A stretch of 33,353 bases of DNA from a bacterium (GTDB taxonomy: Bacteria > Patescibacteriota > Saccharimonadia > CAILAD01 > JADZBC01), in contig JADZBC010000009.1 of NCBI GenBank assembly GCA_020852295.1, positions 350,435 to 383,787 of the forward strand, read 5' to 3'. Below, piece by piece: positions 19,150-24,813 of this stretch. The notes beneath the pieces were generated by a model that worked only from the letters and a program-made list of their open reading frames with translations, made no database searches and had not been told where the DNA came from. Within the stretch, counting starts at the first letter, position 1; each line of letters begins with the position of its first letter. A program made the position numbers and the translations under genes.

Positions 19150-19470
19150 ATGTCAGAAGCACCTACCAAACAACGCATCCGAATCCGCCTCAAGGCGTAT
19201 GACAGCAAGATCATTGACCAGTCTGCCAAGCAGATCATCGATACGGCTATCCGTACCGGTGCCAATGTAGCAGGTCCGATCCCACTGCCAACCGAGAAAA
19301 ACAAGTTCACGGTTCTCACGAGCCCACATGTTTACAAGGACGCCCGTGAGCAGTTCGAAATGCGTACCCACAAGCGGTTGATTGATATCACGGAGCCGAC
19401 ACCTAAGACGGTGGACGCCCTGATGAACCTCAGCTTGCCAGCTGGTGTCGACATCGAAATCAAGATGTAA
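19150..19470 (+). CDS. rpsJ: 30S ribosomal protein S10
   Basis: [71 protein letters not shown]. Confidence 0.98.
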
Positions 19471-20247: not shown

Positions 20248-20811
20248 TCAGCTCAGGAGCGAACGGAGGAAGTCCGCCAGCTCATGGATGATCTTGTCGG
20301 GGCCACCGTCGTTGATGATGACCAGGTCGGGGCCAGTCTCCATGGCGTAGGCGACCTCGTGGTCGGCACGGTCGAGGCGATCCTCGAGCTCGGCCGGGTC
20401 CATGTTGGGATCGCGACCCAGGATACGGGCCCGCTGCAGCTCCCGCATCGGCTCCGGCAGACGGATGAGCACGGTGCGCGTGATATCCGGGAACTGGTCT
20501 CGGACGTTGCGAGCGCCGTGGACGTCGAGCTCGAGCAGGGTGTGCTCGTTCGGATCAGGTACGAGCTTGCCGTACCACTTGCCGAAGTGCTCATCGGTCT
20601 CTAGCAGCTTGCCGTCGCGCTCGAGCTCCTTGAACTCCTCGAGGCTGCAGTAGCGGTACATGGTTGGGCCATATGCCGTGTCGCTGGGCCGCTCGTCGCG
20701 AGTCGTGGCCGACATCCCGAGCTTGAACTCGGGTACCAGACGCAGGGCTCCGCGCCAGGCGGTTTCTTTTCCGGCCCCAGCGGGACCGGAGAGTGTTACG
20801 ATGCTACCCAT
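20248..20811 (-). CDS. Guanylate kinase-like protein (divergent P-loop)
   Basis: VTLSGPAGAGKETAW, SATTRDERPSDTAYGPTMYRYCSLEEFKELERDGKLLE, YGKLVP, LLELDVHGARNV; reverse-strand TTGTCA-17-TATAGT promoter and GGAGA SD. Confidence 0.8.
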   Translation of the reverse strand: MGSIVTLSGPAGAGKETAWRGALRLVPEFKLGMSATTRDERPSDTAYGPTMYRYCSLEEFKELERDGKLLETDEHFGKWYGKLVPDPNEHTLLELDVHGARNVRDQFPDITRTVLIRLPEPMRELQRARILGRDPNMDPAELEDRLDRADHEVAYAMETGPDLVIINDGGPDKIIHELADFLRSLLS

Positions 20812-20896
20812 GGCTTCTCTCCAGGGCTCGGGGACAGGATTGCGATACTATAGCACGACTCAACAGGAGTGACAAGGGTACTGAAGCAATCTACTG

Positions 20897-20925
20897 TTGA
20901 CACAGCCAAATACTTATGCTTAAAT
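20897..20925 (+). promoter_or_regulatory. Predicted strong promoter of a small transcription unit
   Basis: TTGACA (20897-20902)-17 nt-TTAAAT (20920-20925). Confidence 0.65.
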
Positions 20926-20934
20926 AGCACCACT

Positions 20935-21042
20935 ATGAACAGACATAGCTATACATCGCCAATTATGCAAAACCTCGACACCGTCAAAGGTGGCGCGGAT
21001 TTTCGTGTACGCGGTAAGGCTTGTCTGGATACTATGAACTAA
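20935..21042 (+). CDS. Candidate small peptide with double-glycine-like leader: MNRHSYTSPIMQNLDTVKGGADFRVRGKACLDTMN
   Basis: 35-codon ORF with ATG 9 nt after the -10, followed by intrinsic terminator; LDTVKGG resembles GG-leader cleavage motif. Confidence 0.45.
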   Translation: MNRHSYTSPIMQNLDTVKGGADFRVRGKACLDTMN

Positions 21043-21066
21043 TATTACGTTTTTATGTCGAGACGA

Positions 21067-21089
21067 GCCTCCGATCCAGGAGGCTTTTT
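21067..21089 (+). terminator. Intrinsic terminator of the small transcription unit
   Basis: GCCTCC-gatcca-GGAGGC-TTTTT. Confidence 0.8.
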
Positions 21090-21200
21090 ATATTGACATA
21101 GCAAAAGTTGATCTGAATCTCGGGGGCTCTTTCGACCTAACAACCAAGTTGGGTCGCTGATGCGTGACAGAATCACGCGCTCGTGAAAGGACGTACTGTC

Positions 21201-21746
21201 ATGTACGGACCACGAATCGAAGGGGAAAAGGTCGTTCTGCGGCCGCACTGCGCTGAGGATGCGCAGCCCTTCATCGACATGTTGGCCAACTCGACGGTCA
21301 ACCGTTACCTGGCTCGCCAGGAGCCGATGAGCCTGCAGGCGGAGCTGGAGTGGATCGAGGCACGCGCCACCGACCCCAACAGCTTCGGCTGGACCATCGA
21401 GGTGGAGGGGCAGTGCGTCGGCACGGTCGGCTTCGACCACATCAGTTGGCGTCGGGGCGTGGCAACGGTCGGTATCTTCATCGGCCAGCCCACGCTCTGG
21501 GGTCAGGGCATCACCACCGAGGTGGCGAGCTTGGTGGCACGGTACGCCTTCATGCAGCTGGGTCTGCGCAAGATCCAGTCTGGCTACCTGGCGCCCAACG
21601 TGGCTTCGGGCAAGGCGCAGGCGCGGATCGGCCTCGTGGAGGTCGGTCGGTGGCGCGCCGAGCACTTCCGGGACGGGCAGTGGGTCGACCACATCCTCAC
21701 CGAGTTGCACCGCGACGACTGGCTCGCCAGCCAGTCCGAGTCGTAG
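21201..21746 (+). CDS. GNAT-family N-acetyltransferase (RimJ/RimL-like)
   Basis: MYGPRIEGEKVVLRPHCAEDAQPFIDML, GTVGFDHISWRRGVATVGIFIGQPTLWGQGITTEVASLVARYAFMQLGLRKIQSGYLAPNVASGKAQARIGLVEVG; GC-rich; start chosen over GTG 21183 because GAAAGGA lies upstream of ATG 21201. Confidence 0.88.
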   Translation: MYGPRIEGEKVVLRPHCAEDAQPFIDMLANSTVNRYLARQEPMSLQAELEWIEARATDPNSFGWTIEVEGQCVGTVGFDHISWRRGVATVGIFIGQPTLWGQGITTEVASLVARYAFMQLGLRKIQSGYLAPNVASGKAQARIGLVEVGRWRAEHFRDGQWVDHILTELHRDDWLASQSES

Positions 21747-21753
21747 CGGCTCC

Positions 21754-21783
21754 GCCCCCGGCACAGATCAATGTGCCGGGGGC
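21754..21783 (+). terminator. GC-rich 3' hairpin without a U-tract
   Basis: GCCCCCGGCACA-gatcaa-TGTGCCGGGGGC. Confidence 0.65.
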
Positions 21784-21823
21784 ATCCCTTTGTAAGTAGC
21801 CAAATATCAGATAGAATAGGGCG

Positions 21824-22867
21824 ATGAGTGATATAGAATCTCGCAAACAAGATCATGTTGATCTATCATTAGACCCCAGCTCGCAGTACGATACGCGGCC
21901 CTTTGAGGCGTACCGTCTGCCGTACAAGGCACTACCCGAGATCAATCTTGAGGACGTTTCGACCGAGACAGAGCTTTTTGGCAAAAAGTTATCGCAGCCG
22001 CTGATTATTTCCTCGATGACGGGCGGCACAAAGTATGCCGGGACTATCAATAAAAACTTAGCGATCGCTGCCGAGGCCGCGCATGTGGCGCTTGGGGTCG
22101 GTTCGCAGCGTATTGCCCTTGAGAAACGCGAGGCGATTGAGTCATTTGAACTAGTCCGTAAGCACGCCCCTACGGCGGTGCTGTTTGCCAATATGGGTGC
22201 CATCCAGCTCAATAACGGTCGCGATGTGGCCGACTATGAGGCGGTTGTGCGGATGATCGCGGCTGATGCACTGTATCTGCATATCAACCCATTGCAGGAG
22301 GCGATCCAGCCTGGCGGGGACACCAACTATGCCGGATTACTAAAAAAGATCGAGCAGTTGGTCGCGAAGCTCAGTGTGCCGGTTTTTGTGAAAGAAGTTG
22401 GGCACGGCATCGATGAAGCGACTGCCAAGGCCTTGTTTGATATCGGTGTGGCTGGGGTGGATGTGGCCGGGCTCGGCGGTACCAGCTATGCCTGGATCGA
22501 AGCGCGCCGCGCTGGAGAAGATTATTATGCAGACTGGTTTCGCAATGTTGGTGTGCCGACCGATGAAGCAGTTGTCGGGGCAGCGCGCCACAAAGGTGAA
22601 CGGATTGTAGTGGCGAGCGGCGGTATTCGCAATCCGCTGGCTGCGGTCAAGGCGCGAGCACTGGGCGCGGATTATGTTGCGTCGGCCCGCTCATTTCTCA
22701 AGCGTGCCGTGGTAAGTGCCGATGAGACTATTGCGGCTATCGAGATGGCCCGCCGTGGTATCCAGATCACACTCTTTTCGTGTGGGGTGAGCAATTGGCA
22801 AGAGGCAGCCAATATCCAGCTTATTCATACTGCCGAAACGAACTATTCGGACAACCCGAGAATCTAA
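21824..22867 (+). CDS. fni: Type 2 isopentenyl-diphosphate delta-isomerase (FMN-dependent)
   Basis: RKQDHVDLSL, PLIISSMTGGT, GVGSQRIALE, NMGAIQL, HINPLQEAIQPGGDTNY, VKEVGHGI, ASGGIRNPLAAVKARALGADYV. Confidence 0.93.
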   Translation: MSDIESRKQDHVDLSLDPSSQYDTRPFEAYRLPYKALPEINLEDVSTETELFGKKLSQPLIISSMTGGTKYAGTINKNLAIAAEAAHVALGVGSQRIALEKREAIESFELVRKHAPTAVLFANMGAIQLNNGRDVADYEAVVRMIAADALYLHINPLQEAIQPGGDTNYAGLLKKIEQLVAKLSVPVFVKEVGHGIDEATAKALFDIGVAGVDVAGLGGTSYAWIEARRAGEDYYADWFRNVGVPTDEAVVGAARHKGERIVVASGGIRNPLAAVKARALGADYVASARSFLKRAVVSADETIAAIEMARRGIQITLFSCGVSNWQEAANIQLIHTAETNYSDNPRI

Positions 22868-22903
22868 CAACTACGAAAAACATTACGTATTAATAGCTTT
22901 CGT

Positions 22904-22945
22904 AGGTGTCCCACCCGCGCCACGAAGGGCGCAGGTGGTGGATGA
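22904..22945. terminator. Long GC-rich hairpin at the 3' end of the minus-strand orphan gene, no U-tract
   Basis: GGTGTC...GCGCC-acgaag-GGCGC...GACACC, with additional ACC/GGT pairing. Confidence 0.5.
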
Positions 22946-22961
22946 CACCGAACGGGGGGGT

Positions 22962-23333
22962 TCAGGCCGAGGTTGCGAGGATCTCACCCGCCCGACGGAT
23001 GTCGGGGTCGGTGAAGACCATCGGGTGGCGCGGACGATCCTCCAGCTCACCCACCTCCTCGAACGTGAACGTGAGGTTGCGGTCGTGCAGGGCCGCCTTG
23101 ATGGCGCGCACCAGCGGTGCCAGCTCCTGCTGGTCGGTAATGGGCTGGTAGAACCAGACGTTGAGGGCGCGGCCCTCGTCCAGCTCGATCGCTCGCTCGA
23201 TCAGACCGCGGGTGTCGGGCGAGCTGTTGGTCAGGTAGCTGGCCATCGCTCGTCCGAAGGGCTGGTTGTCCTCGGTCGCGATGGACACCTTGGTGTCGCC
23301 ACGCTCAAGGCTGACGGAGATACGTCGGGGCAT
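22962..23333 (-). CDS. Hypothetical protein, unknown function
   Basis: Supplied ORF to 23360; internal ATG at 23333 has SD GGAGGT and gives MPRRISVSLERGDTKVSIATEDNQPFGRAM...; reverse-strand TTGAAT-17-TATAAT promoter upstream. Confidence 0.7.
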   Translation of the reverse strand: MPRRISVSLERGDTKVSIATEDNQPFGRAMASYLTNSSPDTRGLIERAIELDEGRALNVWFYQPITDQQELAPLVRAIKAALHDRNLTFTFEEVGELEDRPRHPMVFTDPDIRRAGEILATSA

Positions 23334-23441
23334 TTGCAGAACCTCCAGGTTCGGTGTCAAAGGTCGGCCACGGGATGTGGCAGACGAAACGAAATTATAA
23401 CAGAACTTTGTGAAATATTCAAGTCATAAGATATAAAACTA

Positions 23442-23469
23442 TTGACAAATATAGATAAATGTGTAAAAT
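23442..23469 (+). promoter_or_regulatory. Predicted promoter of a structured ncRNA
   Basis: TTGACA (23442-23447)-16 nt-TAAAAT (23464-23469). Confidence 0.65.
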
Positions 23470-23475
23470 AGTCCA

Positions 23476-24007
23476 CGTATTCGTACCTTGTAACTTTTCG
23501 GGAGCCACTGGTTCCCGATACTAGGAGTGATTAAGCTCACGCTTAGTATCGGGAACTCAGTTCTCGGCGCATTGGCTACGTAATCAGCCGGTGTGGACCG
23601 TAGGTCGTCATGCATCCCCACGATGCAACTTTCTACGGCCTGTGGTGGAGACTTCTAGACAAGGTCTGGAGCGTCCCCACCGCTCCGAGACCAACTTCCG
23701 ATCAAAGGAGCCAGCCAGCGCGCCCAGCGCAGCGGCTCCCGCGGGGGAGAGTGGCCGACAGGCCTTGAGCTTCCAACGCTCAACGTGCAGCTTCGGCTCG
23801 CACCTCTCCTCCGCGCTTTCGGGCGAGCACTCCTCGGCTGGACGGCTCCACCGTCCGCCACTCCCTTCCTCCTGTGCTCGCACGACAGGGAGCGCCCCTG
23901 GGCCGCCACCTCGGCAGCCCAGGGGTAACCCTGCTCCACCTCGAAGAAACTCTTCGGGGTGTTTCGCCCCGAAGCTTCTCTAAGAAGCCTCGGGGCTTCT
24001 TCGTTTT
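23476..24007 (+). ncRNA. Candidate large structured noncoding RNA, class not recognised
   Basis: Own promoter and terminator; no protein-like ORF; many perfect or near-perfect stems along its length (listed in findings). Confidence 0.7.
23982..24007 (+). terminator. Intrinsic terminator of the candidate ncRNA
   Basis: AAGAAGCC-tcgg-GGCTTCTT-cg-TTTT. Confidence 0.8.
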
Positions 24008-24035
24008 GGTCATTTTGACTCAGTCCGAAAAGTTA

Positions 24036-24065
24036 TTGACACTCCTGGGGCTTATCTGGTACACT
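24036..24065 (+). promoter_or_regulatory. Predicted promoter of the rplC ribosomal-protein operon
   Basis: TTGACA (24036-24041)-18 nt-TACACT (24060-24065); about 120-nt leader before rplC. Confidence 0.65.
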
Positions 24066-24192
24066 AGCTCTTGGTTTACAACCTATACCTGTACAAATCA
24101 GGTTAGTGTGCTGGGAAGTAGCCAGGTCTGCAGCAGCAGAAACCGGTTCATTTGCCAGGTTTTATTTTTTACGCTTTACGCACAAGGAAGAA

Positions 24193-24813
24193 ATGAAAGC
24201 TATTCTTGCTCGCAAAATCGGAATGACCCATCTTTTCTTAGAAGATGGCACCAAGTCGGCAGTGACTGTACTGCAGGCTGGTCCTTGTGTAGTTACTCAG
24301 GTAAAGACTGTCGAGACGGACGGCTACAATGCTGTTCAGATCGGTTTTGGCGAAGCCAAGAAGCAAGCCAAGCCTCAGGCCGGCCACCTCAAAAAAGCCA
24401 AAGCCAACAGCCGTGATTTGGCAGAATATCGTATTGACCCAATCACTGAAGGTGAAGATAACGCAACTGTATCAGTCGGAGACACTATCTCGGCTGATAT
24501 TTTTGAGCTTGGTGAGAAAGTTCAGGTAACCGCTGTTTCTAAGGGTAAAGGCTTTGCGGGTACTATCAAGCGTCACAATTTCGCCCGCGGACCAAAAACC
24601 CATGGTAGCCACAACTATCGAGCACCTGGGTCGATCGGTGCTGGTTTTCCACAGCATGTCTTCAAGGGAATGCGAATGGCTGGCCACATGGGTCATGAGC
24701 AGGTTACGGTGAAGAACCTCAAGGTTATGGTAGTTGATGCTGAGAATAATATTTTGGCGGTTCGTGGTGCCGTACCAGGGCCACGCAAAAGCTTAGTGAT
24801 GGTGAAGGGCTAG
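24193..24813 (+). CDS. rplC: 50S ribosomal protein L3
   Basis: MKAILARKIGMTHLF, GFAGTIKRHNFARGPKTHGSHNYRAPGSIG; ATG 24193 with GGAAG SD preferred over 24106. Confidence 0.97.
   Translation: MKAILARKIGMTHLFLEDGTKSAVTVLQAGPCVVTQVKTVETDGYNAVQIGFGEAKKQAKPQAGHLKKAKANSRDLAEYRIDPITEGEDNATVSVGDTISADIFELGEKVQVTAVSKGKGFAGTIKRHNFARGPKTHGSHNYRAPGSIGAGFPQHVFKGMRMAGHMGHEQVTVKNLKVMVVDAENNILAVRGAVPGPRKSLVMVKG

What the first reader, a model, noticed from the sequence alone, without database searches (positions are those of the whole stretch)
23442..24008. Candidate undescribed ~530-nt highly structured noncoding RNA between an orphan gene and the rplC operon
Seen directly: a near-consensus promoter (TTGACA-16-TAAAAT), then GC-rich DNA with no protein-like ORF, then an intrinsic terminator. 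Stems found by reading: ACTG-GTTCCCGATACTA (23507-23523)/TAGTATCGGGAAC-t-CAGT (23544-23561); CCGTAG (23598-23603)/CTACGG (23633-23638) enclosing TGCATC/GATGCA (23611-23627); GGTCTGGAGCG/CGCTCC-g-AGACC (23663-23692); GGAGCC/GGCTCC (23707-23739); GGCC/GGCC (23753-23764); TTGAGC/GCTCAA (23765-23783); GTGC-AGC-TTCG-GCT-c-GCAC (23785-23803); GCGAGCAC (23823-23830)/GTGCTCGC (23874-23881) enclosing GGACGG/CCGTCC (23840-23856); CCCCTGGGC-c-GCC/GGC-a-GCCCAGGGG (23895-23925); CTTCGGGG/CCCCGAAG (23952-23974). I do not see the RNase P CR-I motif (GAGGAAAGTCC), a tmRNA T-loop/acceptor pairing with a tag ORF, or group II domain V. The size and stem density suggest a large ornate RNA, but class and function are unknown.
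Basis: partly seen in the sequence, partly recalled or inferred. Interest (0 to 1): 0.85.

Follow-up and report, generated by a model that had tools for sequence, protein, structure and literature searches.

The report
Orphan 530-nt structured RNA gene
A small Saccharibacteria-like bacterium appears to carry, just ahead of a ribosomal-protein operon, a promoter-and-terminator-bounded stretch that does not code for protein but should fold into an unusually elaborate RNA; it matches no known RNA family and no relative was found in any searched genome, so it is a real-looking but unproven orphan whose job is unknown.

Summary
The 535-nt stretch 23474-24008 folds far better than shuffles (z = -12.2 on +), ranks first of 54 long intergenic gaps in the genome by folding excess per base, is non-coding in all six frames, and sits between a near-consensus promoter and an intrinsic terminator. 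It is not RNase P or tmRNA: both lie elsewhere in this genome. Rfam 15 has no match. No homolog was found in the 16 other genomes of the order, 396 of the class, 389 of the phylum, phages or plasmids, by DNA or by a structure model of its cloverleaf domain. The same search finds two other RNAs of this genome in all 16 relatives, so this one is lineage-specific; covariation cannot be tested. Best reading: an independent, family-specific structured ncRNA gene, perhaps a trans-acting regulator with C-rich loops; that mode is weakly supported (not beyond shuffles). A by-product may matter more: an order-wide ~400-nt RNA with clear covariation, absent from Rfam.

The parts
23442..23469 (+). promoter TTGACA-16-TAAAAT of the RNA
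   Evidence: 11 of 12 consensus positions; 5' end expected near 23476 (inference)
23474..24008 (+). whole candidate structured RNA
   Evidence: z -12.15, top gap of genome by folding excess, non-coding
23498..23701 (+). 5' domain closed by UCGGGAG (23498-23504)/CUUCCGA (23695-23701)
   Evidence: mean pair probability 0.97, 23498-23703 z -8.9
23507..23561 (+). long hairpin, 4+15+4 bp
   Evidence: pair probability 0.96-1.0; also the reason for the only self-match (83% inverted)
23562..23690 (+). cloverleaf: TCTCGG/CCGAGA enclosing three hairpins (23569-23594, 23598-23638, 23642-23683)
   Evidence: model R3 built on it
23707..23739 (+). hairpin GGAGCC/GGCTCC
23740..23815 (+). 12-bp stem CGCGGGGGAGAG/CTCTCCTCCGCG enclosing three small hairpins
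23819..23885 (+). hairpin GCGAGCAC/GTGCTCGC with inner GGACGG/CCGTCC and unpaired ACUCCCUUCCUCCU (23860-23873), complementary to Shine-Dalgarno sequences
23886..23933 (+). GC-rich hairpin, loop ACCUC
23937..24006 (+). terminal hairpins with three mutually exclusive pairings and the intrinsic terminator
22962..23333 (-). divergent orphan gene, 123 aa (GGAGG before ATG)
   Evidence: hexamer score +39.8; no homolog
23394..23422 (-). promoter of the orphan gene, back to back with the RNA promoter
   Evidence: TTGAAT-17-TATAAT
24036..24065 (+). separate promoter of the rplC operon (TTGACA-18-TACACT, TG before -10)

Best explanation
It is an independent non-coding RNA gene peculiar to this bacterial family, transcribed rightwards from the promoter at 23442-23469 and stopped by the intrinsic terminator near 24006, giving a ~530-nt RNA with a compact multibranched 5' domain and a tail of GC-rich hairpins. 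Shown: stems, folding excess, lack of coding, promoter and terminator signals, a separate promoter for the downstream operon, absence of relatives. Inferred: that it is transcribed and that the RNA is the functional product. Most likely mode, weakly supported: it works in trans like S. aureus RNAIII/Rsa RNAs, offering unpaired C-rich segments (such as ACUCCCUUCCUCCU) to the G-rich ribosome-binding sites of mRNAs to block translation, with the GC-rich stems giving stability. I put the existence of a structured RNA gene at about 0.65-0.7 and this particular mode at about 0.2.
For: Stems verified; z -12.15 on + against -9.74 on -; first of 54 intergenic gaps of 250 bases or more; negative hexamer score in six frames and no Pfam match; promoter and terminator in the right places on the + strand, none suited to the - strand; own promoter for rplC; rplC upstream of relatives lacks it, so it is not part of a conserved r-protein leader. 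For the mode: unpaired bases are 38% C and 7% G; complements of unpaired 7-mers occur in 21 of 697 start regions against 3 control regions; literature precedent: UCCC motifs in several hairpin loops of RNAIII, and a C-rich motif of RsaA that masks a Shine-Dalgarno sequence (PMC3961350).
Against: No homolog, hence no covariation. No expression data. The C-richness of unpaired bases and the Shine-Dalgarno complementarity do not exceed those of composition-matched shuffles (p 0.41 for C, 0.12 for lack of G, 0.12-0.20 for complementarity), so they follow from a C-rich strand. The - strand also folds well, as any set of inverted repeats would.
Confidence: 0.55

Rival explanations
1. It is a long 5' leader of the rplC (S10-spc-like) operon: transcripts from 23442 meet the terminator near 24006, which competes with two other hairpins, and an r-protein or another signal decides whether transcription continues into rplC.
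For: Immediately upstream of and co-oriented with rplC; three mutually exclusive terminal hairpins (-16.2, -23.1, -10.0 kcal/mol); L4-controlled S10 attenuation is a precedent (own knowledge).
Against: rplC has its own promoter after the terminator; relatives have rplC without such a leader; the strongest pairing, 23966-23996, itself runs into a U-rich tract, so there is no clear antiterminator; no Rfam r-protein leader match.
Confidence: 0.15
2. It is not a functional RNA but foreign, GC-rich DNA plus strong terminator hairpins left in a lineage-specific ~4 kb insertion between rpsJ and rplC.
For: Gap filled with GC-rich (65-66%) genes in a 50% GC contig; the orphan gene and the RNA have no relatives; the 3' pieces before the terminal hairpins have modest z (-2.0 to -4.2).
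Against: 5' domain alone has z -8.9 and well-defined helices; decay would break pairing; a good promoter precedes it.
Confidence: 0.2
3. The inverted repeats act as DNA (cruciform or single-strand hairpins for recombination or replication) or are a mobile-element relic.
For: Both strands fold equally well in absolute energy with equal numbers of G-U pairs (12 and 12).
Against: Single copy; no other copy in the genome; none of the neighbouring genes scanned against Pfam is a transposase, integrase or recombinase; the z-score prefers + and the signals are transcriptional.
Confidence: 0.1

Closest known systems
S. aureus RNAIII and C-rich-loop Rsa sRNAs
   Same: Long (RNAIII is about 514 nt, own knowledge), many hairpins, unpaired C-rich segments able to pair with Shine-Dalgarno sequences
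   Different: No sequence or Rfam match; no peptide gene recognised; C-rich loops here not beyond composition
Large ornate bacterial RNAs (OLE, ROOL, GOLLD)
   Same: Several hundred nt, multibranched, highly structured, own transcription unit
   Different: Those are families with covariation (PMC12286853); this is a single sequence, matches none of their Rfam models, and no tRNA gene lies in the window
S10/L4 leaders
   Same: Structured RNA with terminator before a ribosomal-protein operon
   Different: Downstream operon has its own promoter; not conserved in relatives
Order-conserved RNA at C15:15980-16440 of the same genome
   Same: About 400 nt, promoter, terminator, C-rich apical loop, same genome
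   Different: Not homologous: profile and covariance models give no significant match in the window region

Membership tests
RNase P | Rfam match / CR-I motif GAGGAAAGTCC | tested here: not met
   No Rfam match in the window; the genome's RNase P is at C15:58265-58629, 237 bits
tmRNA | tRNA-like ends with tag ORF | tested here: not met
   ARAGORN finds none in the window; it predicts one at C15:39149-39536
OLE, GOLLD, ROOL, HEARO, raiA, group I/II introns and other Rfam 15 families | covariance-model match | tested here: not met
   0 matches at gathering; only chance-level matches up to E 5
New structured-RNA family (any) | covariation in homologs | not testable with these tools
   No homolog found
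RNAIII-like C-rich antisense regulator | unpaired C-rich segments complementary to ribosome-binding sites beyond chance | tested here: inconclusive
   Complementarity present but not beyond shuffles, p 0.12-0.20
RNAIII-like C-rich antisense regulator | binds mRNAs and represses translation | not testable with these tools
   needs experiment
Ribosomal-protein operon leader | conserved leader co-transcribed with the r-protein gene | tested here: not met
   absent upstream of rplC in relatives; separate rplC promoter; co-transcription itself untested
C15 order-wide RNA | match to its two conserved domains | tested here: not met
   R1 best 6.7 bits E 0.5; R2 best 4.6 bits within the RNA

The most novel reading that the evidence does not exclude
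A new class of large multidomain bacterial RNA (compact cloverleaf-bearing 5' domain plus hairpin array), paired with a divergently transcribed orphan protein, confined to one unsampled Saccharibacteria-like family.
Probability: 0.2. Interest if true: 0.65.

Novelty: new member of a known kind. Interest (0 to 1): 0.42.

Why it matters
Patescibacteria have reduced genomes and few known regulators; a large lineage-specific RNA gene in such a genome would show that they still acquire RNA-based functions. It also shows how far single-genome folding evidence can go: without relatives, no family can be claimed. The controls run for it exposed an order-wide conserved RNA that is missing from Rfam and can be tested directly.

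Tried and rejected
DNA homology in the order, class and phylum, phages and plasmids: only single-hairpin or chance hits; the best, G414 E 7e-5, is one GC-rich terminator-like hairpin after a coding gene. Covariance model of the cloverleaf: own copy only. A viral-contig pattern scan for the long hairpin found nothing. Orphan protein: no Pfam, NCBIfam or PHROG family above chance, no PDB match better than E 0.7, AlphaFold pLDDT 40. Translated ORFs inside the stretch: no Pfam. Relation to the C15 RNA of the same genome: rejected. C-rich loops as a selected feature: not beyond shuffles. Search in actinobacterial genomes (possible hosts) could not be centred. rplC search in phages was uninformative.

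Full report
WHERE IT IS. The window is contig C9, 350435-383787, of a 0.82-Mb genome (G000, 17 contigs). Its rplC is closest to those of Saccharibacteria-like Patescibacteria. It is the only genome held of its family. The stretch lies in a gap between rpsJ (19150-19470) and rplC (24193-24810). This gap holds a PQ-loop gene, a guanylate-kinase-like gene, a GNAT acetyltransferase, an FMN-dependent (IPP isomerase-like) gene and an orphan gene. Three of these genes have 65-66% GC, in a contig of 50% GC. In the relatives where the upstream side is intact, rplC follows other small genes and no comparable element is seen.

CHECK OF THE OBSERVATION. The + strand folds at -287 kcal/mol; 100 dinucleotide shuffles average -200 (z -12.15). 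The - strand gives z -9.74. In a contig-wide scan the stretch is among the most structured windows, and it ranks first of 54 intergenic gaps of at least 250 bases by folding excess per base. Coding is excluded as far as sequence allows: hexamer scores trained on this genome are -25 to -57 in all six frames, while the neighbouring orphan gene scores +39.8; no Pfam match. The promoter has 11 of 12 consensus bases, a terminator closes the unit, and rplC has its own promoter 30 bases further on.

ANATOMY. The RNA has two parts. The 5' domain, 23498-23701, is closed by a 7-bp helix. It holds a long hairpin (23507-23561) and a cloverleaf closed by TCTCGG/CCGAGA with three hairpins; pair probabilities are 0.94 or more and the domain alone has z -8.9. 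The 3' part, 23707-23961, is a row of GC-rich hairpins (z -2.0 to -4.2 piecewise up to 23935), then terminal hairpins with three mutually exclusive pairings.

RELATIVES. Rfam 15 gives nothing at gathering in the window and only chance matches up to E 5 in the region. RNase P and a predicted tmRNA are on contig C15. BLAST over 16 other genomes of the order, 389 genomes of the phylum sample and 396 of the class sample finds no homolog; the best outside hit is one terminator-like hairpin. Phages give no match and plasmids one 43-nt chance match. A covariance model of the cloverleaf finds only its own copy in 248 class genomes, 17 order genomes and the whole own genome. Positive controls show that the method works: two other structured intergenic RNAs of the same genome are found in all 16 other order genomes.

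HOW IT MIGHT WORK. Shown: structure potential, signals, independence from the rplC promoter, no relatives. Inferred: transcription and function as RNA. The unpaired bases are C-rich and G-poor, and one 14-nt unpaired stretch, ACUCCCUUCCUCCU, complements Shine-Dalgarno sequences. S. aureus RNAIII and Rsa RNAs use unpaired C-rich motifs to mask Shine-Dalgarno sequences (PMC3961350). This makes a trans-acting translation regulator the leading mode, but shuffled sequences of the same composition do nearly as well (p 0.12-0.41), so it is only a lead. The rival leader-attenuator mode is disfavoured by the separate rplC promoter and by non-conservation. A neutral origin, foreign GC-rich DNA with strong terminators, is not excluded for the 3' half; the 5' domain argues against it.

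VERDICT. Large ornate RNAs such as OLE, ROOL and GOLLD are defined by covariation across many sequences (PMC12286853); this has one sequence.

BY-PRODUCT. The C15 RNA (about 400 nt, between trpS and pheST) is in all 16 other order genomes. In its 5' domain 12 of 22 pairs, and in its 3' domain 8 of 15 pairs, have changes on both sides that keep the pair. It has no Rfam match. A model of its 5' domain hits further families of the phylum, but the 3' domain was confirmed only in the order and in G066. It is not related to the window RNA.

Noticed in passing
L138 15980-16440 (-) = G000 C15:15980-16440, between trpS and a small membrane gene followed by pheST: About 400-nt structured RNA with conserved promoter and terminator, found in all 16 other order genomes, strong covariation (12/22 and 8/15 pairs with double-sided changes), no Rfam 15 match; its 5' domain model also hits other Patescibacteria families (E down to 2.5e-11; the 3' domain was confirmed only in the order and in G066). 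Probably an undescribed conserved RNA.
   Followed up: partly
L131 9140-9420 (-) = G000 C7, between a peptidyl-tRNA hydrolase-like and a dprA-like gene: About 200-nt structured RNA, with promoter-like and terminator-like sequence by eye and a loop CUCACCCUCCUUU, found by BLAST in all 16 other order genomes; no Rfam match. Could be a divergent 6S-type RNA; not tested.
   Followed up: partly
G000 C1:7485-7865 and C6:13819-14089: Two copies of the recO-glyS-mraZ-rsmH-ftsL-ftsI cluster in one assembly, each with a similar structured mraZ-rsmH gap (both end near AACTGGCTG...AAATAGGTAACCTTGACAA): possible mixed MAG, and a candidate cis-regulatory element.
   Followed up: no
genome-wide, G000: TATAAT lies within 20 bases upstream of 54 of 697 predicted starts against 1 of 697 control positions: leaderless genes may be common here.
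   Followed up: no
window 24140-24175 (+): In the rplC 5' UTR, AACCGGTTCATTTGCCAGGTTTTATTTTTT looks like an attenuator-type terminator (read by eye).
   Followed up: no
window 20248-23333: GC-rich (65-66%) guanylate-kinase-like, GNAT and orphan genes in a 50% GC contig, probably a lineage-specific insertion between rpsJ and rplC.
   Followed up: partly
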